From Zygaena filipendulae (lineage: Eukaryota; Arthropoda; Insecta; Lepidoptera; Zygaenidae): a stretch of DNA of 64,000 nucleotides. The position numbers were made by a program, and so were the translations under genes. The stretch covers positions 9,364,501-9,428,500 of the forward strand of contig OU015660.1 in NCBI GenBank assembly GCA_907165275.2, written 5' to 3'. The number at the start of each line of letters is the position of its first letter. The first letter of the stretch is position 1. This document shows positions 13-37,868 of the stretch, piece after piece. The notes under the pieces are model-generated. The model was given only the letters and a program-made list of their open reading frames with translations. It did not search any database and was not told the DNA's origin.

Positions 13-135
13 GTAACTCAGCATTCGTCCGATTCTCAGCCGGATTCGGTTTGTCGCGGACTTCCAGGGGGCGCATCACGGCGCCTTGCGGCGGCCCGTG
101 GAATTCGGCGCCCGTTTGCACCGCACACCCTGCAC

Positions 136-163
136 CTCAGAAGAATATAATTATTCTTCTGAG
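136..163. mobile_element. 28-bp palindromic insert with 8-bp target duplication (copy 1)
   Basis: A 12-bp arm CTCAGAAGAATA and its exact inverse surround a 4-base loop. The insert is flanked on both sides by CCCTGCAC (128-135 and 164-171), an 8-bp direct repeat like the target duplications of hAT or P superfamily transposons. A second copy lies at 1220-1249 with a different 8-bp repeat. It may be the bare inverted ends of a DNA transposon that lost its whole interior. Confidence 0.6.
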
Positions 164-240
164 CCCTGCACTAAAGGCAGGATCGGCCCTGCCCGTCAGC
201 GTGTTGCTTAGCAACTTGCGTGCTTAATTTTTATGAATAA

Positions 241-446
241 TCCTACTAATATTATAAATGTGAAAGTGTGGATGTTTAGATGTTTGCATTTTTGTTACTC
301 ATCACGCAAAAAAGGCTGAACGGATTTGGATGAAATTTGGCATGCACATTCTCAGGACTACAGAGAAGGACATAGGGTACTTTTTATCCCGGAATTCCCG
401 CGGGAACTCTGAAATTACTGCGGGTGAAACCGCGGGGCACCGCTAG
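241..446 (+). mobile_element. Helitron-like Lep1-type repeat, full length
   Basis: The copy starts TCCTACTAATATTATAAA and ends in a CCGCGG hairpin followed by CTAG, preceded by A and followed by T, as expected for Helitron insertion between A and T. It carries the shared inner motif (CGGATTTGGATGAAATTTGG, then a CCCGCGGGAA block). No coding capacity, so non-autonomous. It lies in a Kal1 intron. Confidence 0.7.
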
Positions 447-636
447 TTATTTATAATTGAAAGATAAATTTTGTGGTTTTTTTTAAATATATGAGACAAC
501 AATCGGCCACTGAACACACTCCTTTAATAAGTTTCTCGTTTACACCCTGTACCTATGTAGGTACCTCTATGTAAATTAGGTTAGATATTCTTCAATGATG
601 ATTTTAAAGATAAATAAATCTCTCATTTTAACTCAG

Positions 637-779
637 GGTCAGTATCAGTGAGACTGGAGTGGAGAGAGCCAAAGTCAGATTTACCTATAATGAGATACAA
701 GGTCTTTTGGAGCCGCAGAGTTCGTGGGCTCGGCGAGGAACTCAATTCCGTTCTTGTCAATTACCAGACAGTTCCGAAG
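637..779 (+). CDS. Kal1: Kal1 exon, first half of an FN3 module
   Basis: The acceptor is TTTTAACTCAG and the donor is AAG/GTATCA. The exon starts with two bases of a split codon and ends on a codon border (phase 0). It encodes the A to C strands, with RLEWREP and the conserved MRYKVFWSRR. Confidence 0.8.
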
Positions 780-3763
780 GTATCACAATTATTACTTACT
801 TACTACTTACTTTTTTGTAACAACTTTATAAGTAGGTACTATACTATGTAACTGGCTTTCTCTTTGTTATTATTATCATTGCGTGCGTTAAAGAATTTGT
901 TGAATAAAATTGTTTACATTTTTATCCACGAATTTCACAATAAAATTGTGGCTCTAAAATTAATATACGTTTATAGTTTGATATTTTTACTAAGTTATAC
1001 CTACTTACATATCGTGATAAAAAAGGCCCTTGATCATTTTCAATGAATTGTCAAGGTAATCTTTATTGTAATTCGTGAACCGAAATATTAATATAAATTT
1101 ATTTTTCATTACTCATACTCGGAAAGTAGGTTTGAAGTTGCCTGAGAAGCGGGTTGAAAGTAACCCTTTTCAGCCCTAGGGAGAATCGCTTTCAACTGAC
1201 AGCTGGATACTGCAGAAACCTCAGAAGAATAACTAAATATTCTTCTGAGGCAGAAACTCAAGTTTTTTTTTTTATGTCATAGAGGGCAAACTGGCCAGTA
1301 GCACACCTAATGGATGATTTATGTAAAATAAAATTCATTCATTTTTTCTTTAGCTAATTCCTATTTTTATTTTGACTTTCCTTGCATTCGTAATGAAAAG
1401 CACAGTGTTATCCTCGGGAGAAAGACTTATTTAGTCCCGAGACGGGGTTTGGCGCCCGAGCGTAGCGAGTTACTTTCACCCCTAGGATAACAATGTACTA
1501 TTTTTGATTAGGCTTTAAAAATTTTTATCTGATGAAAATTATTTAAGTTCATTCTGCGTTAAGTACCTATATAATTTTTTAGCTAGATTACTATGTATTG
1601 TATGTAATTATATTGGTAGGTAATAATTCGTTTTTCTTATTTGCAGGAAAAAACTTATATAGAAATAAATGATTTGCTACCGCATTCGATGTATTTTCTT
1701 CAAGTTCAAACGATAACTCGATACGGCGCTGGAAAATTACGAAGCGAAAAAGCAGCTGTTTTCTACAACACTACTAATAATAATAATATCAACAGCGCGC
1801 CAAGTTCAGGTGAAAAATGATTAGCTACTTAATTGTTACTACAGATTTAGTGGGCAGCAGATCGTGTGGTTTGTCTGTTTACAAACTCCACCCACTACAA
1901 CGCGTTTTCTGACCTCAGTATTAAACTCACAAATAATCCGGTGTTTGCGCACCTACAGACGAAATTTCTTTGTTTGCTAAAGATATATTCTAAAGAAAAT
2001 ACTTAGCTGCAAATATTTGCAGGGTTGAAAGTATACAGTATACACCATTATAAATAAACATGTACATTAAATAAATAAAAAAAAATTATTGGTCTTAATT
2101 ATAGAGCGACCTCCAGAGTCACTAAGGAGACGGGAGAAAAATCCCATAAGGGGATTAAAGTTACAAAAAATTATTTGGTACAATAATAAACTAAAAGCGA
2201 GAATCTCTTGGGACCCCATGACGAACGCTGGAGATTCTCCCAAAAGGTAAGCGGTTTACTTGAATAATTTCAAAGGAAACTAGGCATTAGCTACCTATTA
2301 GAAAATATACTACGTCTATTACTTATTAGATATTGTTTTGCAAATATCTGTCAAATATGTTTAATTTTATTTTAAAACACGTACCTACCTATGCACTGAG
2401 TACGTATCTGTTATATTAATTCCATAAATGAAATGCTAATAACGCTTACGGTAAAATACGTGATTTTAGAATTAGTGCCATAGAACAAGTTAGATCCCCT
2501 GAAATGGTATCTACAGAGACTGTGTAGAGCATGTAGAGGGTGTAGGAGTACCTACGCTAGGATCTAATCATGATTATGAAAATTTTTGTTTCTTACAGAT
2601 ACTTTATCCATTGGCGAACGGATAAATGTGAAAATTCCCAAATTCCAGCGAAGGATCTTTTAGCTACGACTGAGGTAACACATAAACCATGTTACAAATA
2701 CTGCGTCGGTCACAGCGGTCATAGCCAACTGCTAAAAAGCTAGTACCTACGTATAGTCTTAGAGATATGAATATGATAGCTGGTACGTTAGTTAACTAGT
2801 AGATAAAGATCTAGTAGGTTATCGACTATCGACGGTTTACTTGCGGCGACGGTTAGGTATCACTATCACTAATAATTCACTACCACGGATCACTAGATCC
2901 TTATTATTATGGTAAATGCGAAAGTGAGTTTGTTTGTTTGTTACGCTTTCACGCCTCAACGGTCATCATTAAATTTTGCATTACACGTTATCAGGGGTAC
3001 AGAGAAGGGCATAGGGTACTTTTATCCGGGAATTCCCGCGGGAACTCCCATGTTATCGCGGGTGAAACCGCGAGGCACAGTTGGTAATATAAAACAAAGT
3101 CCTCCCGCCGGCAGACGTCTGTTTGCGATAGTCAAAAAACTACCTACTGAACGGATTTTCATGCGGTTTTCATAAGGAATGTTTAGGTACCTACCTATAT
3201 GGTTTGTCAAGGTTTTGTGAAAATTGATTGAAATTCTTATAAGTAATCTAGTAAGTTAGTAAGCTAACAATTCGAAAGTGAGTTTGTTCGTTAGTTTGTT
3301 ATAATGCTTTCACGCCTCAACGACTCAACTGATGAGCATGAAATTTTACATAGGTAGGTACATGTTGTCAGGGGTAGATATAGACAAGGAGATAGGATAT
3401 TTTTCAACCCGCATTTCCCGCAGAATCTCAGAAATCACCGTTGGTTCAACCGAGGGGAACAGTTAGTTATTGGATATGGCAGGATTTACCCATTTTTTTA
3501 ATGGACTTCATTTGCAAGTTCGTGGTGTCGTTCAATCACAAGGCTACGTTCAAAAATTCTTAATAATATGTAAATTTAATATTTAATCTTTTCAGAAAAC
3601 TGTTTTCGAGATATATGAGCTCGATTACCATTGTATCTACAAAGTGAACGTCAATAAATCAACGAAACCAAAATCTTCTGATTCTGAACTGAACATCACT
3701 GTTCCAGGATGTGAATATTTTAAGCGAAGAATGAAGGATACTAATTTAAATTGTGTTACGTAA
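637..3763 (+). CDS. Kal1: Anosmin-1 homologue (Kallmann syndrome protein), 3' exons
   Basis: Anosmin-1 is a secreted, heparan-sulfate-binding matrix glycoprotein acting in cell adhesion, epithelial morphogenesis and axon branching. Five exons join in phase: 637-779, 1647-1809, 2105-2246, 2599-2674 and 3596-3763. They encode fibronectin III modules; the first contains YKVFWSRRV and later YFLQVQTITRYG, close to the vertebrate YKVFWSWMV and VVELQAITYWG positions. The second contains ISWDPM, YFIHWRTDKC and YHCIYKVNV, matching the anosmin module whose cysteines pair across strands. The protein ends soon after PGCEYFKRR, so the two extra C-terminal modules of the human protein are absent, which fits a short insect form. 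The 5' part, with signal peptide, WAP domain and first FN3, lies before the window. All five acceptors and four internal donors are canonical. Assignment is firm at family level. Confidence 0.85.
1220..1249. mobile_element. 30-bp palindromic insert with 8-bp target duplication (copy 2)
   Basis: It has the same 12-bp inverted arms as the copy at 136-163 but a 6-base loop. The flanks are GCAGAAAC at 1212-1219 and 1250-1257, an exact 8-bp direct repeat unrelated to the one around copy 1. The insert splits another repeat. Confidence 0.6.
1260..1313 (-). repeat. SINE/LINE 3'-tail fragment
   Basis: Read on the minus strand, this is the common lepidopteran tail ending GCCCTCTATGACATAAAAAA. A related tail ends the SINE at 21443-21808. 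It is 5' truncated with a poly(A) end. Confidence 0.5.
1647..1809 (+). CDS. Kal1: Kal1 exon, second half of an FN3 module
   Basis: The acceptor is TTTGCAG and the donor TCAG/GTGAAA. It starts in phase 0 and leaves one base. It encodes the E to G strands with YIEINDLLPHSMYFLQVQT and a Ser/Asn-rich linker. Confidence 0.8.
2105..2246 (+). CDS. Kal1: Kal1 exon, linker and start of the last FN3 module
   Basis: The acceptor is TTAATTATAG and the donor AAAAG/GTAAGC. It opens with a basic linker (RRREKNP), as expected for a heparan-sulfate-binding protein, then KARISWDPMTNAG. Confidence 0.75.
2599..2674 (+). CDS. Kal1: Kal1 exon, middle of the last FN3 module
   Basis: The acceptor is TTTCTTACAG and the donor GAG/GTAACA. 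It encodes YFIHWRTDKCENSQ, matching the Y-H-V-R-W-F-P-E-A-C position of vertebrate anosmin. This small exon has no ORF of its own long enough to be noticed by simple ORF calling. Confidence 0.75.
2897..3084 (+). mobile_element. Helitron-like Lep1-type repeat
   Basis: Shows AATGCGAAAGTGAGTTTGTT, the CCCGCGGGAACTCC block and the terminal GTGAAACCGCGAGGCACAG hairpin. The end reads TTGG instead of CTAG. Intronic in Kal1. Confidence 0.55.
3265..3466 (+). mobile_element. Helitron-like repeat, diverged
   Basis: Same motif order as the copy at 2897-3084 but more decayed; it ends GGGGAACAGTTAG. Intronic in Kal1. Confidence 0.45.
3596..3763 (+). CDS. Kal1: Kal1 last coding exon
   Basis: The acceptor is AATCTTTTCAG. 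It contains 55 codons and a TAA stop. FEIYELDYHCIYKVNV matches the conserved cysteine-bearing F strand of the anosmin module. The chain ends in a short basic, cysteine-containing tail. Confidence 0.8.
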   Translation, partial: KTVFEIYELDYHCIYKVNVNKSTKPKSSDSELNITVPGCEYFKRRMKDTNLNCVT

Positions 3764-4152: not shown

Positions 4153-4408
4153 TGTTAGAGTTGCATGTTATGGATGTTGTATAGGCACATACATGGACTG
4201 GCAATCTACAAAAGAAAAACTGTGATGACTTAATTGTCACAGTAATAAAAAGAATGCAACTAGAGAAAAAGTAATGTCAGCTTTGATATCTTATATTTAA
4301 TCGAGTTGAAGATAAAATGTTTTCTTGTGTTTCCTAAATGTGTTTGTATTGTTAAATAAAAGCGTTTCACTTAGCCTCCTATACTGCGTATAACTGTTAC
4401 CTTCATCA
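4153..4408 (+). repeat. Copia 5' LTR
   Basis: Starts TGTTAGAGTT and ends CTTCATCA; 256 bp. An AATAAA signal lies at 4355-4360. It shares the variant GTTGCATG with the outer 3' LTR, whereas both internal LTR stubs read GTTGCTTG. Confidence 0.85.
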
Positions 4409-4418
4409 GGTTATGGGC
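4409..4418 (+). promoter_or_regulatory. Primer-binding site, initiator-tRNA-Met half type
   Basis: GGTTATGGGC directly follows the LTR. It is complementary to the anticodon stem-loop region of initiator tRNA-Met, not its 3' end, which is the priming mode known for Drosophila copia. Confidence 0.5.
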
Positions 4419-4442
4419 ATCGCAAAATATAAGTGAATCGCA

Positions 4443-6170
4443 ATGTCGACTTCGGAATCCCAAATTAACCAATGGTATTCGGAACCTACTGTCACTAGCA
4501 GACAAGCAGAATCGACAGCGAGTATGAGCTGGCAAACTATAGAAAAGTTAGAAGGCAGCTCAAATTACAGCACATGGAAATTTCTCATGGAATTACAACT
4601 CATCCATGACGATCTTTGGGAATACACTGAGAGAACACCAGCCTCAAGTGATGAGATCAAGAGAGATCAAAAGGCACGAGCGCGAATATGTCTTTCGTTA
4701 AAGCCACACTGTCTAGTTCATGTACAGACAACAAAAACAGCTAAAGAAGCCTGGAGTGCGCTGAAGGCAGCCTTTGAGGATACAGGTATCAACAATAGAT
4801 GCAGATTACTGTCGAAACTTGTCAGTATAAGACTAGAAACATACCCCTCATTAAGAGAGTACGTAACAGAAGTTCTTACGGTGGCGCAGAAGTTACGAGA
4901 TCTTGGAAAAGAGATAGATGATGAACTTTTGGCCACGTTGATACTTCAAGGGCTCACTGAAAAGTATCAACCATTGAGATTAGCCCTGGAAGCAAGGAAC
5001 GAACCTCTTACATCAGACTTTGTTAAAATGAAACTCCTGCAGTTAGAAGATCCTCATCAAGCCTCCACCTCTTCTTCGACCTCAGCTTTGTCAGCAAAGA
5101 AAAACAAAAGAGTAGTTAAAAGCAACAAAGATAAAAGGAAAATCAAATGCTACATCTGTGAAGGTCCGCACAAAGCTATTGAATGTCCTCAAAATCCGAA
5201 GAAGAAAAATGATGCGTTTTACGCTTTTGCTACGAGTGGAAAAGAAACCGGTCAAGATTGGATCATTGATTCTGGCGCTTCTAATCATATGAGCAATAAT
5301 AAAATGTGGATGAAGGATATGAAAGCTATCGAGAAGCGTGAGATTACGTGTGCAAATGGAGAGAAAGTATCTGCACAATGTATGGGTACTGTAAGTATGG
5401 AGAAACATAGTCTGACTGTGAAGGATGTCTGGTATGTACCAAATCTTTCAAATAATTTATTAAGTGTAAGTACGATAGTAAAAAATGGTCATACAGTCGT
5501 ATTTAAATCTTCAGGATGTGATATTTATTTGAATAATGATTGCAGGGTGATAGGTAAGGTGGCTGTGAAAGGCGTATTAGAAAGGGGCGTGTATAAACTA
5601 AAACACTGTCTACAGGGAGCAGCCCTGTGTACCACGTCGAACGCTGAGTTAAAGCTATGGCATCAGAGGATGGCGCATCTTGGAATACGTAACCTAAAGC
5701 TTCTTAGAGATAAGATGGCAACCGGGGTGAGTTTTTCCAATTCTTCAACAAAGTTCGAGTGTGCAGAGTGTCTGTTTGGAAAACAGACTGTACAATCTTT
5801 TAGTAAAAGTGGAGCTACAAGAGCTACGGAGGTACTCGAGCTAGTCCACACGGATCTTTGCGGACCCATGTCCGTAGAATCACATAGCGGCTATCGGTAT
5901 TTTATGACTGTTATAGATGATAAAACTCGTAAAACCTTTGTTTATTTATTAAAACAGAAGAGTGAGGTTTTTCAAAAATTAAAAGAGTTTAAGGTTTTTG
6001 TGGAAACACAAACAGGGAAAAGAATCAAAAACATACGGTCAGATAACGGGCGTGAATTTGTGAATCGAGAAATAGATGATTTCTTAAAACTTCATGGAAT
6101 TCATCACCAGTTAACAATCGATTACACACAAGGGAAGGTGTTGACTACTCAGAAACTTACAGTCCAGTAG
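4443..6170 (+). pseudogene. Copia gag-pol piece A, 5' part, truncated in integrase
   Basis: The ORF begins 35 bases after the LTR. Domains in order: gag (residues 1-230), zinc knuckle CYICEGPHKAIEC near 240, aspartic protease IIDSGASNHM near 275, the integrase HHCC region (WHQRMAHLG ... CAECLFG) near 400-440, and the integrase core with HTDLCGP and IRSDNGREF. The frame breaks at 6129/6130: the following 985 bp of normal pol, present in piece B, are missing. That removes the catalytic glutamate region, and a frameshift gives about 13 foreign residues before the stop. Confidence 0.8.
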
Positions 6171-7465
6171 TTCGACATTCATCTCTGCGACTTCTACTAG
6201 CTCTAGCTGCGAGAGAAGGTCTTTCTATAGACCAAATGGATGTGAAGACTGCTTTCCTCAATGGCAACCTATCTGAAACAGTTTTCATGCAACAGCCTGA
6301 AGGTTTTCGAGAGAAAGGGATGGAAAATCATGTTTGTCTTCTAAAGAAATCGCTTTATGGATTGAAGCAGGCGCCTCGAGCCTGGAATCAGAGACTCGAC
6401 GCGGCTTTAAAACTGAGGAAGTTTCAAGCGTTAGAAAGCGAACCTTGTGTCTACATTAGAAAAAGCCAGCATAGAATATTAATCGTCGCTGTCTACGTAG
6501 ATGATCTTCTTATTTTTTGGCAAAATAAAATCGAAATGGAGAAAGTCAAGAAGGAATTGATGGAGTCGTTCGAAATGCGTGATTTAGGAAAAGCAGATCT
6601 TTTTCTTGGAATGCATATTAATCAGTTTAAGGATTGCATTACCATTTCACAAGAGAAGTATATTGGTCAACTTCTTAAGCGTTTTAATATGGAGGAATGC
6701 AAGATTGTATCCACACCAAGTGTTGCTGGACAGCATCTAGAAAAGCCAGGTCCAGATCACAAATTGGATCATAGCATTCCTTACCGTGAGTTGATTGGCT
6801 CACTAATGTATCTGGCTGTGTGTACGAGACCTGACGTAGCTCATGTGGTGAATTCGCTCAGCCAATACAATAGCTGCTATGCAGAAGAGCATTGGGTAGC
6901 AGCAAAGAGAGTCCTTAGATACCTTAAGGGTACTAAAGCCCACGGACTAAAATTTACGGTGGGTAAAACAAAAGTGTTTATTGAAGGATTCGCTGATGCA
7001 GATTTTGCGGGAGATTTCGATAGAAAATCCTATTCGGGATATACGTTTCTTTGTCAAGGAGGAGCTATATCGTGGCAAGCAGTTAAGCAGCGCACTGTGG
7101 CATTGTCGACTGCAGAAGCAGAGTATGTAGCCCTTGCTGAGGCTACTAAAGAAGCTATACTTCTACGCAGAATTGTTAGTGAGTTGAGATGTTCTCAACC
7201 GGATGACATCACTATCTACTCTGACAGCCAGTCAGCAATCGCTATTGCCCAAAACCCTGTTCAACATCAGCAGACAAAACATATTGATGTTAGGTACCAT
7301 TTTCTGAGGGGTGCCCTTGCAGATGGTGTAATAGAACTGAAATACAAGAAGACGGATGATATGGTTGCGGATGTTCTGACCAAGCCGCTTTCGCGAGGAA
7401 AGTTTGAGAGATGTGTGAAAAGTCTGGGTGTCTGTCAAATTTTTAAAGAGAAGTGTATAAAGTGA
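6131..7465 (+). pseudogene. Copia pol piece A, 3' part (reverse transcriptase and RNase H)
   Basis: It resumes after the 985-bp deletion in a different frame. It holds RT motifs QMDVKTAFLNGNL and YVDDLL, then RNase H with DADFAGD, STAEAEYVALAEA and KHIDVRYHFLR, and the usual copia C-terminus VADVLTKPLSRGKFE. Without an aligned gag-integrase frame it is non-functional as it stands. Next come a GGAGGAG polypurine tract and the LTR stub. Confidence 0.8.
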
Positions 7466-7489
7466 GAGAAAGCTGAAATTAAGGAGGAG

Positions 7490-7692
7490 TGTTAGAGTTG
7501 CTTGTTATGGATGTTGTATAGGCACATACATGGACTGGCAATCTACAAAAGAAAAACTGTGATGACTTAATTGTCACAGTAATAAAAAGAATGCAACTAG
7601 AGAAAAAGTAATGTCAGCTTTGATATCTTATATTTAATCGAGTTGAAGATAAAATGTTTTCTTGTGTTTCCTAAATGTGTTTGTATTGTTAA
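7490..7692 (+). repeat. Internal copia LTR stub 1 (first 203 bp)
   Basis: Starts TGTTAGAGTTGCTTG after the polypurine tract and stops after TATTGTTAA, where BEL/Pao sequence begins. The last 53 bp of the LTR are missing. Confidence 0.8.
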
Positions 7693-9715
7693 TCATCTGA
7701 AAACTCTCCAGGCCGCGGTGAGGCATCCGAACTTCCTATCAAAAAATGGTTCGGAGTAAGTGCTTCTTCATCATCAATATCTAATGATACATGAGTAAGT
7801 GGACGACTATTTACAATATTTTCCGCTTCTAATAATAAAGTGTGAAGAACTTCCTCTTTTGGAGATATTGTTAACAACGTTGAGGATAAAGCCGTCTTCA
7901 CAGATCTAACTAATCTCTCCCAAACTCCACCCATATGTGCAGCGTCAGGCGGATTAAATGTCCATCTTACACCTTGCTCATTCACCTTCTGAGCCATATC
8001 ACTAGACGACAACATCTCTTGAACAGCTTTTCGTAATTCTTTATCTGCACTCCGAAAATTTGTGCCATTATCAGAGTGAATTTGTCTAGGAAAACCACGA
8101 CGAGCTGCCATTCTTCGGATAGCTAAAATAGTCGAATCAGTTGATAAAGAAGATGCCAGTTCAATATGTACTGCACGAATGCTAAAACATGTAAAAATTA
8201 CACCCCAACGTTTTTCTTTTCGACGACCAATAGTAACCATCATTGGACCAAAAAGATCGATACCACAGTAAGTGAAGGGTCTACAATGATGTTGGAGTCT
8301 GTTCTCAGGAAGAGGTGCCATCATCGGCTGCACTGGTCGACTCCTCTTAGTTTTACAGACGACACATTTATTAATCATGTTCTTTACCGTAGTCCTAAGT
8401 CGAAAAATATAATAACGTTGACGTAACTCATTCACTAGTGTTTCTGCGTTATTGTGACCTAGTCTCTTATGAAAATGGTTAATAATCAATTTTGTTACGT
8501 TATGTTTGGCATCTAAAATGATTGGTCGCCTCAGATGTAAAGGAAGATCTTTACTCGAATCTAAACGACTTTTAGCTATAAGTAAACCATCTGTATTTAA
8601 TTCAGGGTTCAATCCGAGTAATTTACTGCATGACTTTAAATCTTCAAGTTTCTTGAGGGCAGTAATCTCAGCTTCAAACATTTCAGACTGTGCTTGCCTT
8701 AATATAATTTTTTCAGCTCGTTCTTCATAGTCAGGAGAAATAAGCAATATCACTGACTTTTTTAAACAGAATCTATCTACAAATAATAAAACATATGACA
8801 TACTTCTTACAAGGCGGCGCCAATTAGAAAAACGCGTATCAAGTATAAGTTTTCGTGGTTCTTTAGAACTTGAGATTGAGAAAATGCTCTCAATTTCGGG
8901 TTCTGGATTCATCTGGGGCCATTTTTCTTCCGGGAGGCACAAAAATTCAGGACCACTAAGCCACTTGTCGTTTATATTATCCTTATATCTAGTAGCTTCA
9001 TCGGCAACATTAAGGGTCCCGGGTAACCATCTCCACTCCTGAGGTTTGGTTAATTCATCTATTTCTGCTAAACGATTTGAAACAAACACTCCATCCTTTT
9101 TAGGGTTTTTATTTATCCAAAACCAAACAGTCTTTGAGTCAGTCCAAAAATACCTTTTACTGATGACAAGAGACTGTTCTTTTATAACAGTTTATCCAAG
9201 TCTTGCTCCTAAAAGTGCTGCTTGAAGTTCAAACCTGGGTATCGTTGCTGATTTCAACGGCGCTACGCGACTCCTTGCCGCAATGAAAACAACTTGTTCG
9301 TACCTACGCGAATACACCACGCAGGCATAGGCTTCTTCGAAGGCAGTCATAGGGTACATTTTATAAATACGAGGTGGAATCTTCCTGTTCATACGCCATA
9401 GGAAACGTTTATCATTCTGGTCTTGCTTAATATTCTTCACCTGCATAAACATCTCACGAACAATAAATCGCAGAATATCCGGTTTATTGGGATTTCTTAC
9501 GCCCAGCAAGCCTGTCTCCCTCATATTTCCTATCTTCCTAAACTTAGTGCCAAAAATATCTACAGCACGAAGTTCATCACGAGCGTATTTTTTATCAGCT
9601 TGATATAGGCTATGACAGTTGTCGTCACTATGTTGCAAATAACAAGACACAAATGTATTTTCCATCAGGGATGTTGAGAAACCATGTAAAACCCATCCTA
9701 GCAGCGTTCTGGATG
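7693..9715 (-). pseudogene. BEL/Pao retrotransposon pol fragment (RNase H and integrase)
   Basis: On the minus strand one frame runs the whole way, broken only by an in-frame TAA at 9192-9194 after AALLGARLG. Order: end of the RT region (TLLGWVLHGF), Pao-type RNase H (PRFELQAALLGARL), integrase zinc finger (CVVCKTKRSRPVQP), and an integrase core with GIDLFGP, HSDNGTNF and HMGGVWERLVRSVK. Neither end is a natural BEL terminus: there is no LTR, primer site or target duplication. The left border joins an LTR stub, and the right joins copia at an AAGAG overlap. It was probably captured as RNA during reverse transcription of the copia element. Confidence 0.8.
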
Positions 9716-12183
9716 AAGAGTTTAAGGTTTTTGTGGAAACACAAACAGGGAAAAGAATCAAAAACATACGGTCAGATAACGGGCGTGAATTTGTGAATCG
9801 AGAAATAGATGACTTCTTAAAACTTCATGGAATTCATCACCAGTTAACAATCGATTACACACCGCAGCAGAACGGTGTTGCTGAGCGAGCAAATCGCACC
9901 ATTACTGAAAAGGCGCGCACTATGCTCTTGGGAGCTCAGCTTGATAAGAAATACTGGGCTGAAGCTGTAAATACTGCAGTTTTTCTTAAAAACCGTTCAC
10001 CAACAATAGCCGTGAGGAATAAGACTCCAGAAGAAGCTTGGTCTGGAAAGAAAACTGATCTAAGTTTTCTTAGAACTTTTGGATGTAGGGCATTTATGCA
10101 TATGCCAGACCAGAAACGTAAGAAATGGGACCCAAAGAGTAAGGAGTTACTTTTCGTAGGGTACTGTGAGCAGTCTAAAGGCTATCGACTGATTGACCCT
10201 TCTACACTGAAGGTATATAAGGCAAAAGATGTCGTATTCTTTGAAGATCAGAAGTCTTTGTCCTCATCTAGTAAATCTCACATGATGGAAGGAAATGACA
10301 ACCATCAGTTCTTCATAGATCAGCCTACAGGAGATGCTGCTCCACAAATAGCTCCACTTACAGGTGAACTAGAGAGATCATGTGAAGAAGGAGCTACAGG
10401 GGAAAATGAAGAGATTGTTGTTTGTCCAGAATCAGAAAATGTTGAGACCAACGAAGAGGCAGAGCAACCAAGTGTTTCCGAAGAGAGAGAAGATGTTCTA
10501 GAGGATATGGAAACTCCCGCTTCTGAGGAACCGGCAACAAGGAGATATCCTCTAAGAGACAGGAAACCTAAAGAATTTTCTGACTATTACCTCTACCAAA
10601 CAGCTCTAGACCCTGAGGCAGAAGAACCACGATCTATTCAAGAGGCTCTGTCAGGGAGACATGGAGAGGAATGGCGAAAGGCGGTTCAAGAAGAAATGAA
10701 TGCCTTAAGAAAAAATAAAACATGGATCCTAGTTGAACCACCAGCTGCCCAAAATGTCATAGATTCTAAGTGGGTACTTAAAATCAAGACAGAGGGGGGA
10801 GGTAAAAGGCGGTTCAAGGCCCGACTGGTAGCTAGGGGTTTTAAACAAAGGGAAGGTGTTGACTACTCAGAAACTTACAGTCCAGTAGTTCGACATTCAT
10901 CTCTGCGACTTCTACTAGCTCTAGCTGCGAGAGAAGGTCTTTCTATAGACCAAATGGATGTGAAGACTGCTTTCCTCAATGGCAACCTATCTGAAACAGT
11001 TTTCATGCAACAGCCTGAAGGTTTTCGAGAGAAAGGGATGGAAAATCATGTTTGTCTTCTAAAGAAATCGCTTTATGGATTGAAGCAGGCGCCTCGAGCC
11101 TGGAATCAGAGACTCGACGCGGCTTTAAAACTGAGGAAGTTTCAAGCGTTAGAAAGCGAACCTTGTGTCTACATTAGAAAAAGCCAGCATAGAATATTAA
11201 TCGTCGCTGTCTACGTAGATGATCTTCTTATTTTTTGGCAAAATAAAATCGAAATGGAGAAAGTCAAGAAGGAATTGATGGAGTCGTTCGAAATGCGTGA
11301 TTTAGGAAAAGCAGATCTTTTTCTTGGAATGCATATTAATCAGTTTAAGGATTGCATTACCATTTCACAAGAGAAGTATATTGGTCAACTTCTTAAGCGT
11401 TTTAATATGGAGGAATGCAAGATTGTATCCACACCAAGTGTTGCTGGACAGCATCTAGAAAAGCCAGGTCCAGATCACAAATTGGATCATAGCATTCCTT
11501 ACCGTGAGTTGATTGGCTCACTAATGTATCTGGCTGTGTGTACGAGACCTGACGTAGCTCATGTGGTGAATTCGCTCAGCCAATACAATAGCTGCTATGC
11601 AGAAGAGCATTGGGTATCAGCAAAGAGAGTCCTTAGGTACCTTAAGGGTACTAAAGCCCACGGACTAAAATTTACGGTGGATAAAACAAAAGTGTTTATT
11701 GAAGGATTCGCTGATGCAGATTTTGCAGGAGATTTTGATAGAAAATCCTATTCTGGATATACGTTTCTTTGTCAAGGAGGAGCTATATCGTGGCAAGCAG
11801 TTAAGCAGCGCACTGTGGCATTGTCGACTGCAGAAGCAGAGTATGTAGCCCTTGCTGAGGCTACTAAAGAAGCTATACTTCTACGCAGAATTGTTAGTGA
11901 GTTGAGATGTTCTCAACCGGATGACATCACTATCTACTCTGACAGCCAGTCAGCAATCGCTATTGCCCAAAACCCTGTTCAACATCAGCAGACAAAACAT
12001 ATTGATGTTAGGTACCATTTTCTGAGGGGTGCCCTTGCAGATGGTGTAATAGAACTGAAATACAAGAAGACGGATGATATGGTTGCGGATGTTCTGACCA
12101 AGCCGCTTTCGCGAGGAAAGTTTGAGAGATGTGTGAAAAGTCTGGGTGTCTGTCAAATTTTTAAAGAGAAGTGTATAAAGTGA
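9716..12183 (+). pseudogene. Copia pol piece B, 5'-truncated but otherwise open
   Basis: Starts inside the integrase core at FKVFVETQTGKR and stays open to the normal stop. It contains the integrase catalytic stretch (IRSDNGREF ... QQNGVAERANRT), the copia integrase C-terminal region, an acidic linker, RT (WVLKIK, RARLVARGFKQ-like motif, MDVKTAFLNG, YVDDLL) and RNase H. It supplies the 985 bp missing from piece A. Apart from a few substitutions (for example HWVSAKRVL against HWVAAKRVL) it matches A, so the two come from very close relatives. It lacks gag and protease. Confidence 0.8.
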
Positions 12184-12207
12184 GAGAAAGCTGAAATTAA
12201 GGAGGAG

Positions 12208-12298
12208 TGTTAGAGTTGCTTGTTATGGATGTTGTATAGGCACATACATGGACTGGCAATCTACAAAAGAAAAACTGTGATGACTTAATTGTCACAGT
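12208..12298 (+). repeat. Internal copia LTR stub 2 (first 91 bp)
   Basis: Starts TGTTAGAGTTGCTTG, the same variant as stub 1, and breaks after GTCACAGT. Confidence 0.8.
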
Positions 12299-12427
12299 TG
12301 ATGAAAGTAACAGTTACACGCAGTATAGGAGGCTAAGTGAAACGCTTTTATTTAACAATACAAACACATTTAGGAAACACAAGAAAACATTCTATCTTCA
12401 ACTCGATTAAATATAAGATATCAAAGC
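12299..12427 (-). repeat. Inverted copia LTR stub (last 129 bp)
   Basis: Reads TGATGAAAGTAACAG, the reverse of the LTR end CTTTCATCA, and continues to ATATCAAAGC. It starts exactly at the LTR terminus, so an intact LTR end has been joined to an internal LTR site, as integrase would do. It carries a few differences from the outer LTRs (GAAAG for GAAGG, TTACACG for TTATACG). Confidence 0.8.
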
Positions 12428-12428
12428 G

Positions 12429-13799
12429 TTCAAGGCCCGACTGGTAGCTAGGGGTTTTAAGCAAAGGGAAGGTGTTGACTACTCAGAAACTTACAGTCCA
12501 GTAGTTCGACATTCATCTCTGCGACTTCTACTAGCTCTAGCTGCGAGAGAAGGTCTTTCTATAGACCAAATGGATGTGAAGACTGCTTTCCTCAATGGCA
12601 ACCTATCTGAAACAGTTTTCATGCAACAGCCTGAAGGTTTTCAAGAGAAAGGGATGGAAAATCATGTTTGTCTTCTAAAAAAATCGCTTTATGGATTGAA
12701 GCAGGCGCCTCGAGCCTGGAATCAGAGACTCGACGCGGCTTTAAAACTGAGGAAGTTTCAAGCGTTAGAAAGCGAACCTTGTGTCTACATTAGAAAAAGC
12801 CAGCATAGAATATTAATCGTCGCTGTCTACGTAGATGATCTTCTTATTTTTTGGCAAAATAAAATCGAAATGGAGAAAGTCAAGAAGGAATTGATGGAGT
12901 CGTTTGAAATGCGTGATTTAGGAAAAGCAGATCTTTTTCTTGGAATGCATATTAATCAGTTTAAGGATTGCATTACCATTTCACAAGAGAAGTATATTGG
13001 TCAACTTCTTAAGCGTTTTAATATGGAGGAATGCAAGATTGTATCCACACCAAGTGTTGCTGGACAGCATCTAGAAAAGCCAGGTCCAGATCACAAATTG
13101 GATCATAGCATTCCTTACCGTGAGTTGATTGGCTCACTAATGTATCTGGCTGTGTGTACGAGACCTGACGTAGCTCATGTGGTGAATTCGCTCAGCCAAT
13201 ACAATAGCTGCTATGCAGAAGAGCATTGGGTATCAGCAAAGAGAGTCCTTAGGTACCTTAAGGGTACTAAAGCCCACGGACTAAAATTTACGGTGGGTAA
13301 AACAAAAGTGTTTATTGAAGGATTCGCTGATGCAGATTTTGCGGGAGATTTTGATAGAAAATCCTATTCTGGATATACTTTTCTTTGTCAAGGAGGAGCT
13401 ATATCGTGGCAAGCAGTTAAGCAGCGCACTGTGGCATTGTCGACTGCAGAAGCAGAGTATGTAGCCCTTGCTGAGGCTACTAAAGAAGCTATACTTCTAC
13501 GCAGAATTGTTAGTGAGTTGAGATGTTCTCAACCGGATGTCATCACTATCTACTCTGACAGCCAGTCAGCAATCGCTATTGCCCAAAACCCTGTTCAACA
13601 TCAGCAGACAAAACATATTGATGTTAGGTACCATTTTCTGAGGGGTGCCCTAGCAGATGGTGTGATAGACCTGAAATACAAGAAGACGGATGATATGGTT
13701 GCGGATGTTCTGACTAAGCCGCTTTCGCGAGGAAAGTTTGAGGGATGTGTGAAAAGTCTGGGTGTCTGTCAAATTTTTAAAGAGAAGTGTATAAAGTGA
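12429..13799 (+). pseudogene. Copia pol piece C (reverse transcriptase and RNase H)
   Basis: Begins at FKARLVARGFKQ, directly after the inverted LTR stub, and runs open to the normal stop. Same RT and RNase H motifs as A and B, with private changes such as FQEKGME, PDVITIYS and KFEGCVK. The polypurine tract AAGGAGGAG leads into the outer 3' LTR. Confidence 0.8.
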
Positions 13800-13823
13800 G
13801 AGAAAGCTGAAATTAAGGAGGAG

Positions 13824-14079
13824 TGTTAGAGTTGCATGTTATGGATGTTGTATAGGCACATACATGGACTGGCAATCTACAAAAGAAAAACTGTGATGAC
13901 TTAATTGTCACAGTAATAAAAAGAATGCAACTAGAGAAAAAGTAATGTCAGCTTTGATATCTTATATTTAATCGAGTTGAAGATAAAATGTTTTCTTGTG
14001 TTTCCTAAATGTGTTTGTATTGTTAAATAAAAGCGTTTCACTTAGCCTCCTATACTGCGTATAACTGTTACCTTCATCA
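13824..14079 (+). repeat. Copia 3' LTR
   Basis: 256 bp, TGTTAGAGTTGCATG to CTTCATCA, no difference seen from the 5' LTR. Followed by the AAACT target duplication. Confidence 0.85.
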
Positions 14080-14344
14080 AAACTAAATAAAAAAAACATT
14101 TAAATCACACAGAAAACACTTAAATAAAAACGCGGGTTTACAAGGGTGAAGGACTGTTACATTTAATTTAATAAGTAGCTAACACTATACTTAGATAGCT
14201 ATTTAATTTATTACCTAATTTTTTTCCAATTATTGTTACTAAAAATTTATAAATAACAATTATTATTAATGCTGTCGAATTTTTAATATTAAATATTGAT
14301 CTTAAAAAATCTAGAGACTTTTTCGCTTTGGACTAATTTTTTTT

Positions 14345-14965
14345 TATAAATAGTACATTGTTATCCTAGGGGTGAAAGTAATTTATTTAGTCCCGAGACG
14401 GGGTTTGGCGCCCGAGCGTAGCGAGGGCGCTAATAGATCGAGGGACTAAATAAATCTTTCTCTCGAGGGTAACACTGTGCTTTTCATTACGAATGCAAGG
14501 AAAGTCAAAATAAAAATAGGAATTAGCTAAAGAAAAAATGAGTGAAGATCGGATAGTCGCTTGACACTTTCCCACCTATTTCTTTTTCTTTGGCCGGCTA
14601 GCTATTCAGCCAGTATTTTTTATTTACATTGTGGCGACCTAAAAAAAATATTATCTTTAATTATTAATTATTAATTAAAGAAAATAAAAAAATATAAATA
14701 GGAATTAGCTTAAGAAAAAGTGAGTGAATTTTATTTTAATTAATACCTACTTAAACTTTACGTTATTTCAATTTTACATCGCGCTGGCTGTATAGAAAGT
14801 TGAAACATGGTTCAATAGAAATGTGAAAATAGACCTAGTTTTTTTTTTAATAATTTGACAGTTGTCAGTTGAAAGCGATTCTCCCTAGGGCTGAAAAGGG
14901 TTACTTTCAACCCGCTTCTCAGGCAACTTCAGACCTACTTTCCGAGTATGAGTAATGAAAACTAA
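14345..14965 (-). repeat. Two-block MITE-like repeat, inverted copy
   Basis: Carries blocks Q (14347-14560) and P (14862-14965) of the repeat at 1105-1503, here reversed. A second partial Q border (AGGAATTAGCTTAAG) lies at 14699-14745. The rest of 14085-15470 is AT-rich intergenic DNA with nothing else recognised. Confidence 0.5.
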
Positions 14966-15472
14966 TATTTTCACTCTAATAATTTCAAAACTAAGGCAAA
15001 AATCTTGGTACTATTTATTTTATTTATTTTAAACTTTTTACTATCTAACATTATTTCATTTACGGGGATTTAGGGGATTTTGACTTAACTTTTAGGGGTA
15101 AATATTTTCGAGAGTTGGTAACACTGCTTTTCGAAATGTCAAAAAGTGGATAGGAAATAGGGAAATAAAATAAAATAGTTTTTTAAACAATATCTAATTT
15201 TTAGCGATAATTAATAATTTTCATGGTATTTACTAACTTTATACTCTTTTTCCGGCACGGATTTTTATTGTAAAACGAAGAAGCACGCCAAGCATATGCC
15301 CGTACAGTATTTTAATATTTATTAGTATAATATGCACAATTTAAGCTTATTTACTATATCTCGTCATTTATTTATGAATAAAGTAAAATTTTTCGTGTTA
15401 AAATATAAAATGGTGTTCATGTATTAGCCGATATCTTCGAAAGTTTCAATCTTCGTCTCAGGGCGTAACCTT

Positions 15473-32158: not shown

Positions 32159-32167
32159 TCTCATATA

Positions 32168-32345
32168 TTTATATGGGATTACAAAGTTATTTGTGCAGTT
32201 GGTACATATAACTGCATATATAACTTTGTAATTCCATACATTTATATGGGATTACAAAGTTATTTGTGCAGTTGGTACATATAACTGCATATGTAACTTT
32301 GTAATTCCATACATTTATATGGGATTACAAAGTTATTTATGCAGT
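32168..32345. repeat. 73-bp tandem repeat with internal hairpins
   Basis: About 2.4 units begin TTTATATGGG at 32168, 32241 and 32314. Within each unit, GGATTACAAAGTTA and TAACTTTGTAATTCC are inverse, so each unit can fold. Confidence 0.65.
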
Positions 32346-32735
32346 TGGTGTATCTAGAAAACTGTACCGAAATTGCAAAATATTTCAATTTTTCCTTGAT
32401 TTATACAATAAACACTAATTGTATTCTAAATTTCAAACTTCTATGTCTGCTAGAAGTGCCTTAGAGTTTTGATGATCGGTCAGTGAGTGAGTGAGTGACC
32501 TACAAAATTAAGAAACTTTGACTAGTTATAATTCTTAAACTACTGGTTCAAATCGAATGAAATTTAAATTATACCGTCTTTATACAATACCTGCTTGTTT
32601 ACTAAAAATTCAGGCTTCTAGTTTTATCCACAACGAAGTTATAGGGGGTCGAAAATGGCCTGAATTGCTTCGAGAAAAGGATAGTACGGCCGTGCCGCTT
32701 TTGTTGCTCGACTTGGCGGGGGCACTGCCGTGCCC
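32346..32735 (+). repeat. Unclassified lepidopteran dispersed repeat
   Basis: Contains CTTAGAGTTTTGATGATCGG with (GTGA)n, then TATAGGGGGTCGAAAATGGC and AGTACGGCCGTGCCGCTT, a string I recognise from many moth and butterfly genomes. Class unknown. Confidence 0.4.
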
Positions 32736-34467: not shown

Positions 34468-34664
34468 GCTACGATCTCAGACGAAATAAAAACTCAAGAC
34501 GGAGCGCTGTGAACAAAGAAGTGAAGCCGTAAAACTACGCCTCGGCGTGTACATGCACAGTTACACGCACACACATATAACGAAACTACGCCTTACCTTG
34601 TCAGTCAAGCTATTCCGACGCGCGGAGTGTCACGCTGTAATAATTTCTATTTTTTAAAGAAAAA

Positions 34665-34760
34665 ATGCCGAATTTTGTAGTTAGAGGGTGTAAAAACCAA
34701 TCTTCGAAAAATAAAAAGCAGGATAGAACCACATTTTTAATAAAATATCAATTTTATTAA
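34665..34760 (+). pseudogene. Decayed THAP-like zinc finger start
   Basis: MPNFVVRGCKNQSS, then TTFLIK and a stop after 31 codons. The MPxx...GCKN layout resembles the start of THAP (C2CH) domains, but the first cysteine is missing and the chain is cut before the FHxFP motif. A remnant of a transposase N-terminus. Confidence 0.4.
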
Positions 34761-34908
34761 TTTATGACAACTTGGAACACAAAACCTCCACAACTTTCAT
34801 AAGTGTTGCTACTAGTGAGCGTCACAATAGTCCCCATTTTTTGGGTAAGTTAATGTGATCTGGAACGTAATGTAACACGTTTATTTACCTATTTCGATTT
34901 TAAGTTTT

Positions 34909-35672
34909 TAACCGACTTTCAAAAAGCAGGAGGTTATGCATTCGATTGTATGTATGTTTTTTTTTTTTTTTTATGTAGATTCACCGATTACTCGAAGACG
35001 GTTGGACCAATTTCGAAAATTCTTTTTTTGTTTGAAAGGGTTTACTCTCAATTAGGTCCCATTGCCACCAAATCGGGATCTGATGATGGGATCTTGGAGA
35101 AATCGAGGGAACTCTTCAAAAATAATAAGCACACCTATACCGATTTGAGTATTTTTTATAGTAAATCGTTCATTTGCTTTCGGAAAGCAAAATTTGAAGA
35201 AGTGGAACTGATTATGAAGACCACAGACTACTCAATAATAGGTATTTCACGAGTTCCGATTCGTTAACTTTAAATGGTTCCTAAATAATTTATGCTCGTC
35301 ACAACTCACAACGTATATGGCAAAGTGGAACTGAGTGTGATGTACCAGGAGAACTCCTCAAAAATTAACGTCCCTGCATCGAGAAGAGCAATATTTTGTA
35401 AAAGATGATGAGTAGTTAACATCAGGCTATTGTAACTTAGATAAATTACAAACCGTCTCAAGAAATTAACAAATTTTTAACAAAAAGCACAAAACTAAAA
35501 AGCTTAAATATCAAAATACCGATTTAATCCAACAGACAATAATACCTACCTAATCGAAAAGTGGTAGCACAAACCAGTAATAGTAGGTATTACGTTGTTG
35601 GTCTGTTGGATTAAATCGGTATTTTGTTATTTTTAGCTTTTTAGTTATGTGTTTTTTGGAAGTCGGTTTTAA
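34909..35672. mobile_element. Nested element with AACCGACTTYCAAAAA inverted ends
   Basis: The left end ACCGACTTTCAAAAAG and right end TTTTTTGGAAGTCGGTTTT are inverse. Near the right end a hairpin of about 55-60-bp arms (35482-35539, 35600-35660) is centred on ACCGATTTAATCCAACAGAC. A truncated relative lies at 37869-37930. It interrupts the THAP-like transposon. Confidence 0.5.
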
Positions 35673-35983
35673 TTATTTTGTAAAAAAATTTAATATTCAT
35701 AAAATTAATGTAAGTGTAAGTAGGCGTTAATTTTTATTTTCCATGTTTTATCATAAATTCGAAACCTATATTTTTAAGGTTCTCGAATATACAACCGAGG
35801 TATACAACTTAAAAAAATACTAAATTTACTTATCCATTCATCTTTCTAGAACTTAACAATTTTGGGTAATAAGTTTTCACTGCACGGCAACACTCACTAA
35901 ATGCTCACATGTTTACGATACGGGCTTCACTTTGTTGTTGACAGCGCTCCGTCTTGAGTTTTTATTTCGTCTGAGGCTACGAT

Positions 35984-37198: not shown

Positions 37199-37868
37199 CT
37201 AATGATACTATATAAAGCTTGTTATAAAGTGTTAATAAAGCTTCTTGTGTAACGAGTTGCTGGATAGAGCTTGCTCTTAAGAATGCAAAATATTTTTAAT
37301 TAGTCTTCTGCTTGTGTCATCATTAATTCCCGGAACATTTTTAATCGAAATAGACTTAAGCTTCGGCTTAGCGGGAATATTCGATGTCTTCCCCTTTAAC
37401 TTGTAACAAGATACTAGAGTTTGTTCAAAATATTAAGGCAAAGGAAATATGAGGTTTCTAAAATATGTAATTTCACGTCGCGGAGTTATTAAAATTTCAA
37501 TTTAACTAGGATGCCTCCTGAAAAGTTTCGCTTGTTATTGGGTTCGTTACAAGTTGTTCTTTTTCACTCTCCATGTTTTAAACATTATTTTGTTTTTTTT
37601 TCCTTCTTTTAGTTAATTAAAAAATATGTTTCGCGGTTCGTGTTTTTTTTTTAACGTTAAATTGGACTGTCTCTACTAATAGTTTCGTTAAGCATTTGCC
37701 ACAGTAATAATATAACAAACAATAGTAGATATGTTATTTGGATGAAATAACCCTCGAATGGAGATAGCTTACACGCTGAAGTAACACGTAGGATTCCTTT
37801 TATGAGGAAAGAAAGGAGGAGGAAATCTCAAAACTGACGTGATGATACCACGGCGGACCGTTAGTATT

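What the first reader, a model, noticed from the sequence alone, without database searches (positions are those of the whole stretch)
136..1249. Two 28-30-bp palindromes, each flanked by its own 8-bp direct repeat
At 136-163 and 1220-1249 the same 12-bp inverted arms (CTCAGAAGAATA / TATTCTTCTGAG) surround loops of 4 and 6 bases. Each is bordered by an exact, different 8-bp repeat (CCCTGCAC; GCAGAAAC). That is the signature of transposition with 8-bp target duplications, yet the insert is only the two inverted ends. Either these are the smallest inserts of a MITE family, mobilised with no interior, or both copies are deletion products of longer elements. Two independent identical deletions seem less likely. 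A hairpin footprint from host excision would be built from flanking DNA, not a shared sequence.
Basis: partly seen in the sequence, partly recalled or inferred. Interest (0 to 1): 0.75.

Follow-up and report, generated by a model that had tools for sequence, protein, structure and literature searches.

The report
Palindromic scars left by departed transposons
The two tiny palindromes are best read as scars left when a jumping gene, probably related to fly P elements, cut itself out and the cell glued the ends together; hundreds of similar palindromes lie across the same genome, a natural record of past transposon departures and of how the breaks were repaired.

Summary
The window's assembly holds 484 palindromes with the same 12-bp arms and a 0-20-base centre; the backward-read control gives 0. 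Of 52 read with flanks, 38 have an exact 8-bp repeat and 45 have at most one mismatch. They fall into 20 interior forms, so this is not one MITE. One-armed and partly trimmed versions between exact 8-bp repeats also occur.

A second family has a long element. At 34476-35975 lies a 1,500-bp element with a 35-bp inverted repeat beginning CTCAGACGAA and an exact 8-bp repeat. Its ends also form 764 short palindromes genome-wide. In 134 both arms reach 17 nt or more; 5 places have an arm of 21 nt or more.

Best explanation: P-type excision scars. P transposase cuts 17 nt inside each end, and end joining leaves two 8-bp repeats around up to 17 nt of each end.

Weak points: no intact CTCAGAAGAATA element was read, its right end is inferred, and no transposase is tied to either family.

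The parts
128..135 (.). 8-bp target duplication, left copy (CCCTGCAC)
136..163 (-). Excision scar 1, 28 bp. Read on the minus strand: 13 nt of one end (CTCAGAAGAATAA), TT filler, 13 nt of the other end (ATATTCTTCTGAG)
   Evidence: the split into arms and filler is inferred
164..171 (.). 8-bp target duplication, right copy (CCCTGCAC)
1212..1219 (.). 8-bp target duplication, left copy (GCAGAAAC)
1220..1249 (+). Excision scar 2, 30 bp: 17 nt of the left end (CTCAGAAGAATAACTAA) joined to 13 nt of the right end (ATATTCTTCTGAG)
   Evidence: the split is inferred
1250..1257 (.). 8-bp target duplication, right copy (GCAGAAAC)
34468..34475 (.). 8-bp target duplication (GCTACGAT) of the related long element
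34476..35975 (+). Related element (family B), 1500 bp, perfect 35-bp terminal inverted repeat beginning CTCAGACGAAATAAAAACTCAAGACGG; no long transposase frame seen (longest stop-to-stop frame 137 aa)
   Evidence: L009 holds a second copy of its right part, 92% identical over 318 aligned columns
34665..34736 (+). Open start MPNFVVRGCKNQSSKNKKQDRTTF, resembling the beginning of a THAP domain (resemblance recalled; no tool confirmed it)
   Evidence: not confirmed, and not among the THAP matches listed
35976..35983 (.). 8-bp target duplication (GCTACGAT), right copy

Best explanation
The palindromes are excision scars (footprints) of P-type cut-and-paste transposons. An element with ends CTCAGAAGAATA... 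inserts with an 8-bp target duplication. Later its transposase releases it by cutting one strand at the very end and the other about 17 nt inside each end, so the two flanks keep about 17-nt 3' single-stranded tails of element sequence. The host joins the tails by end joining, using 1-2 matching bases, trimming, or adding a few bases. The product is two 8-bp repeats around a near-palindrome of about 34 bp or less, plus any filler, because the two tails are inverted copies of each other. Shown: copy number, 8-bp repeats, the spectrum of joins, one-armed scars, the same kind of palindromes in a second family whose long element is in the window, and an arm limit between 17 and 20 nt in that family. 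Inferred: that the enzyme is of the P superfamily, that the cut is at exactly 17, the right-hand end of the CTCAGAAGAATA element, and that the joins were made in the germline.
For: 484 palindromes genome-wide, control 0. In 52 read copies: 38 exact and 7 one-mismatch 8-bp repeats and 20 junction forms. All 38 exact repeats differ from one another, and the target motif is palindromic and reaches 3 bp outside the repeat (G first 20 of 38, C last 18 of 38), as in 8-bp-duplicating transposons. With 17-nt tails CTCAGAAGAATAACTAA and CTCAGAAGAATATGCTT, 31 of 52 joins use shared bases, 10 are blunt and 11 need filler; with the first tail fixed, TGCTT ranks first of 1024 five-base endings of the second. 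The tails were chosen after seeing the data. Scars with one arm or trimmed arms between exact 8-bp repeats: 12 nt only (9354507) and family B 17 nt + G (9359679); L007:1336, L014:2827 and L037:75. The same scans also gave a few unrelated rows: 2 of 6 and L013:873. Prediction test: the family of the window's long element, with different arms, also has palindromes, 764 genome-wide, control 0. There, 134 have both arms at least 17 nt, and 31 of the first 50 of those are exactly 35 bp; an arm of 21 nt or more occurs at 5 places. Mechanism and matching Drosophila junction tables: PMC7776569, PMC10983969, PMC2895639.
Against: No intact CTCAGAAGAATA element was read. The right end that the 17+17 reading needs (CTCAGAAGAATATGCTT, not followed by T at +7) occurs at only 17 places, letters not shown. 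The left-type end under the same rule occurs at 344 places; that class includes a few short scars (L015, L039 and L007:1336 are among the 50 printed). Of the 50 printed, 25 run on to the 21-mer CTCAGAAGAATAACTAAAGCA followed by 13 different triplets, which simple 17+17 joining does not predict. In family B the commonest size, 35 bp (10 of the first 50), needs one added base or an 18-nt tail, and L028:152 and the 32-bp places suggest arms of 20 nt in a few cases. The THAP-like start was not confirmed and is not among the THAP matches listed (150 of 225 candidates scored). The one listed THAP match inside DNA I held is not in a CTCAG-ended element; the other listed matches were not examined.
Confidence: 0.8

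Rival explanations
1. Smallest mobile MITE: the 33-bp form (and perhaps the 27- and 26-bp forms) is itself cut and pasted by a transposase supplied elsewhere, and the other forms are damaged copies.
For: One form makes up 15 of 52 copies and two more make up 8 and 4; most copies have their own 8-bp repeat.
Against: 20 forms in 52 copies. One-armed copies between exact 8-bp repeats. An independent family shows the same class of palindrome. A 33-bp unit has no room for two tails of about 17 nt plus transposase binding sites (inference from the P mechanism). The commonest form is also what joining the two inferred 17-nt tails by one matching base would give.
Confidence: 0.08
2. Excision scars of the same kind but with uneven cuts: one end cut about 21 nt inside, the other about 12 nt inside.
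For: Matched to a 21-nt end CTCAGAAGAATAACTAAAGCA, the long arm peaks at 21 (15 of 52), the short arm is 12 in 38 of 52 and 13 in 13 of 52, and only 1 of 52 has both arms of 14 or more. 25 of the 50 printed places run to the same 21-mer. Two places 565 bp apart end in this 21-mer on opposite strands (C1:6930506 and 6931047).
Against: In family B, whose two ends are identical in the one element read, 134 of 764 have both arms at 17 or more and only 5 places have an arm of 21 or more. This reading explains fewer family-A joins by shared bases (12 of 52 against 31 of 52) and leaves more needing filler (15 against 11).
Confidence: 0.12
3. Scars of hAT-type elements, which also make 8-bp duplications.
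For: 8-bp repeats and a palindromic target motif also fit hobo (PMC3276498 Tables 3 and 4, passages).
Against: Ds footprints are described as V(D)J-like end joining through an intra-helix transesterification intermediate (PMC1978519 abstract); that this makes footprints from flank bases and not from both element ends is recalled. The ends begin CTCAG; the usual hAT start CAG is recalled, not tested.
Confidence: 0.06
4. Two-ended internal deletions of longer copies during replication or gap repair, without transposase excision.
For: Would also leave both ends between the 8-bp repeats.
Against: Deletion endpoints would scatter through the element. In family B the counts fall from 134 (both arms 17 or more) to 5 (one arm 21 or more).
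Confidence: 0.04

Closest known systems
Drosophila P-element excision footprints (end-joining products at 17-nt 3' tails)
   Same: Two 8-bp repeats around inverted terminal bases of the element, variable join, shared bases or short fillers, some products with little left of one arm (PMC2895639 Table 1, passages)
   Different: Those come from induced excision of one marked element. These are hundreds of natural scars of unlike end sequence (CTCAG... instead of CATGATGAAATAACATA) in another genome.
P-MITEs of Anopheles gambiae
   Same: 8-bp repeats and P-type inverted ends (PMC1562414, passages). The 244-bp element at C11:9347879-9348122 has a similar plan.
   Different: P-MITEs keep P-like stretches of about 100 bp and an interior; the palindromes have none.
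Zebrafish Pdre2 / THAP9 elements
   Same: Short (13-bp) terminal inverted repeats, 8-bp duplications, excision followed by repair (PMC10983969, passages)
   Different: Excision there is reported with small to larger flanking deletions; different end sequence; no transposase identified here.
hAT (Ac/Ds, hobo) footprints
   Same: 8-bp duplication (hobo)

Membership tests
P superfamily | 8-bp target site duplication | tested here: met
   38 of 52 exact, 45 of 52 with at most one mismatch; long element GCTACGAT
P superfamily | Terminal inverted repeats on long elements | tested here: met
   Perfect 35-bp repeat in the window element; a near-perfect one in the 244-bp element. Family A's own long element not read.
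P superfamily | Excision tails of 17 nt | tested here: inconclusive
   Family B counts drop between 17 (134 with both arms at least 17) and 21 nt (5 places). The test at 18 nt did not complete.
P superfamily | Transposase with THAP, RNase H and GTP-binding domains | tested here: inconclusive
   THAP-like start in the window element not confirmed and not listed. The genome has at least 143 THAP matches; one was examined and is not between CTCAG ends, the rest were not examined. The GTP-binding domain search did not complete.
P superfamily | Palindromic target motif near GTCCGGAC | tested here: inconclusive
   Palindromic motif with G first, C last and A/T three bases outside; it fits P and hobo alike
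MITE family of 28-33 bp | Copies share one interior | tested here: not met
   20 interior forms in 52 copies
MITE family of 28-33 bp | Two ends present in every copy | tested here: not met
   One-armed copies between exact 8-bp repeats
hAT superfamily | Footprint made of flank bases, not element ends (feature recalled) | tested here: not met
   Scars keep up to 17-20 nt of element ends

The most novel reading that the evidence does not exclude
Family A is a ghost transposon: it is known almost only from its scars, because in this lineage excision followed by end joining outran copying back, so that scars far outnumber surviving elements. The genome then carries a sequence-level archive of more than a thousand natural P-type excisions in two families (484 + 764 palindromes, one-armed scars not counted; flanks read for 52 of the 484 and 1 of the 764), from which the cut position and the host's join preferences can be read without an experiment.
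Probability: 0.35. Interest if true: 0.75.

Novelty: new member of a known kind. Interest (0 to 1): 0.55.

Why it matters
P-type excision scars are familiar from Drosophila experiments. A genome that stores hundreds of them, in two end families, would let one read transposase cut sites and host end-joining habits from an assembly alone. Two-ended, interior-less palindromes with target duplications could otherwise be mistaken for the smallest MITEs. It also suggests that copy counts of such elements understate how often they moved.

Tried and rejected
Rejected: a single 28-33-bp MITE; hairpin-type footprints; chance.

A decoding I changed twice: I first read the commonest 33-bp form as 17+17 with unlike ends (note), then as 21+12 with like ends (notes), and returned to 17+17 after the family-B counts. 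Both readings are in the report.

A repeat related to the DNA around scar 2 lies at 14442-14970 in inverse orientation. I hoped for an empty site, but its middle does not align.

Viral contigs hold no exact match to the palindrome or to the family-B end. Rfam found nothing in the window at its gathering scores. The 24-aa THAP-like start found nothing in Pfam, in PDB sequences or in the protein search. The THAP domain at C11:9199865-9200086 (L054) is genuine (Pfam E 3.1e-14), but no 8-bp repeat with CTCAG ends was found around it.

Paper searches for natural genome-wide P-type footprints: one search found no paper; two searches listed 20 of 58 and 20 of 50 papers, none of which I recognised from title and abstract start as describing such footprints. 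I do not claim that none exists.
Full report
Observation. Both palindromes are present as described, with exact 8-bp repeats on either side. In the 64-kb window the exact 12-mer occurs only there (4 matches, 0.01 expected). A blind scan for an exact 8-bp repeat around an insert of up to 1500 bp with inverted ends of at least 8 bp picked out the two palindromes and one long element, 34476-35975, whose ends begin with almost the same bases, CTCAGACGAA. The other rows were four that pair one place with a 66-bp tandem array and one at 37429. Twenty Markov controls gave one row in all.

Genome scale. The window lies in a 365.9-Mb assembly, unnamed. I take it for a moth or butterfly from recalled sequence habits; this was not tested. 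The palindrome with a 0-20-base centre occurs 484 times and its backward-read control 0 times. I read flanks for the first 50 places listed plus the two in the window, 52 of 484. Of these, 38 have exact 8-bp repeats, 7 have one mismatch and 7 have two to five. The 38 exact repeats are all different. Their composition is palindromic: G first in 20, C last in 18, and A or T three bases outside in 69 of 76 positions counted on both sides. P and hobo elements have target motifs of this general kind (PMC3276498, passages).

Not one element. The 52 copies have 20 different centres. The commonest, 33 bp, accounts for 15, then a 27-bp form for 8 and a 26-bp form for 4. There are also inserts between exact 8-bp repeats that keep one arm or have one arm trimmed: 12 bases only at C11:9354507; 20+8 at L007:1336, 10 bases at L014:2827, and 10+7 at L037:75 lying directly beside a second scar that uses almost the same target. 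The scans that found them, for inserts starting CTCAG or ending CTGAG, also returned a few unrelated rows (2 of 6; L013:873). A unit with one arm cannot move by cut and paste, so the class is better read as what is left after something moved.

A second family as a test. If these are scars, the family of the long window element should leave them too, with its own ends. It does: CTCAGACGAA, 0-30 bases, TTCGTCTGAG occurs 764 times, control 0. One of these was read with flanks: L028:152, 31 bp, exact 8-bp repeat. A one-armed scar of the same family, not counted in the 764, lies at C11:9359679-9359696, where exactly 17 nt of the end plus one G sit between two copies of TAATGAAC. Because this family's two ends are identical for 35 bp in the window element, arm length can be counted. 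134 palindromes have at least 17 nt on both arms. Of the first 50 of these, 31 are exactly 35 bp and none is 34, so the commonest has one base between two 17-nt arms: an added base, or an 18-nt tail on one side. Only 5 places have an arm of 21 nt or more together with at least 10 nt of the other; four of the five are 32 bp long, and in the one whose letters were shown the 21st base could belong to either arm. So the arms stop between 17 and 20 nt. The query that would fix the limit at 17 or 18 did not complete.

Mechanism. P transposase cuts the transferred strand at the end of the element and the other strand 17 nt inside, leaving 17-nt 3' tails, and makes 8-bp duplications (PMC7776569, its section 5 read, passages; PMC10983969, passages). 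After excision in Drosophila the flanks keep these tails, and end joining gives two 8-bp repeats around parts of both tails, often sharing 2 bases, sometimes blunt, sometimes with filler (PMC2895639, Table 1 as shown). The joins here look the same. With tails CTCAGAAGAATAACTAA and CTCAGAAGAATATGCTT, 31 of 52 joins share bases, 10 are blunt and 11 need filler. With the first tail fixed, TGCTT fits best among all 1024 five-base endings of the second. Scar 2 of the window is then 17 + 13, and scar 1, on the minus strand, is 13 + TT + 13. The tails were chosen from the same data, so this is a fit and not an independent test; the independent test is family B.

What does not fit. I read no intact family-A element. 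Ends of the second type not followed by T at +7 occur at only 17 places, letters not shown, against 344 of the first type under the same rule; that rule removes most but not all of the palindromes (L015, L039 and the L007:1336 scar are among the 50 printed). Of those 50, 25 continue to the same 21st base and then diverge into 13 different triplets, 7 of them TAG. These could be ends of several internally unlike elements, one-armed scars, or a sign of uneven cuts at 21 and 12. An uneven-cut reading also describes the 52 copies, but it is contradicted by family B unless the two families differ. I keep it as a rival.

Which superfamily. 8-bp repeats, inverted ends and the 17-20-nt arms point to P. 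Near its 5' end the long element has an open start that resembles a THAP domain to my eye, but no tool confirmed it, and it is not among the THAP matches listed genome-wide (150 of 225 candidates scored). The assembly holds at least 143 THAP matches. I examined one, the one inside the larger stretch I held; it is not enclosed by CTCAG ends. P membership is therefore probable, not shown. hAT also makes 8-bp repeats, but Ds footprints are described as V(D)J-like (PMC1978519, abstract), and that they keep no inverted element ends is recalled.

Verdict. The finding is real. It is ordinary in kind, since P-type footprints are known from fly genetics, and unusual, to my knowledge, in amount and setting.

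Noticed in passing
L037:75-126: Two different scars lie almost back to back, the second using a target that overlaps one 8-bp copy of the first (GGTGTAAC, then GTGTAACC): apparently insertion and excision twice at one spot.
   Followed up: no
L006:1501-1802: Three inserts with exact 8-bp repeats within about 300 bp, one of them a complex 38-bp insert with extra templated-looking pieces.
   Followed up: no
C11:9347879-9348122 (in L069): A 244-bp element with ends CTCAGACCAAATAAAAACTAAAGACGG and exact 8-bp repeats CTAACATC, a relative of the window element.
   Followed up: partly
window 4153-14080: Copia-type pol fragments repeated at about 99% identity (6130-7692 and 12464-14026, 10805-12298 and 12423-13914), with an integrase reading frame on the other strand between them.
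   Followed up: no
window 32162-32349: 2.6 copies of a 73-bp unit that is itself a hairpin, so an apparent 8-bp repeat around a 65-bp palindrome there comes from the tandem array.
   Followed up: partly
G000 C6:12313208-12376682: Seven family-A ends on one strand, mostly spaced about 12 kb apart, as in a tandem array of long units.
   Followed up: no
G000 C25:2368199-2756007: Many THAP-domain matches crowd into about 390 kb of one contig.
   Followed up: no
G000 C1:8336438-8338895: A THAP match lies about 2.3 kb from a family-A end pointing towards it; with this many THAP matches and ends one such pair could be chance.
   Followed up: no
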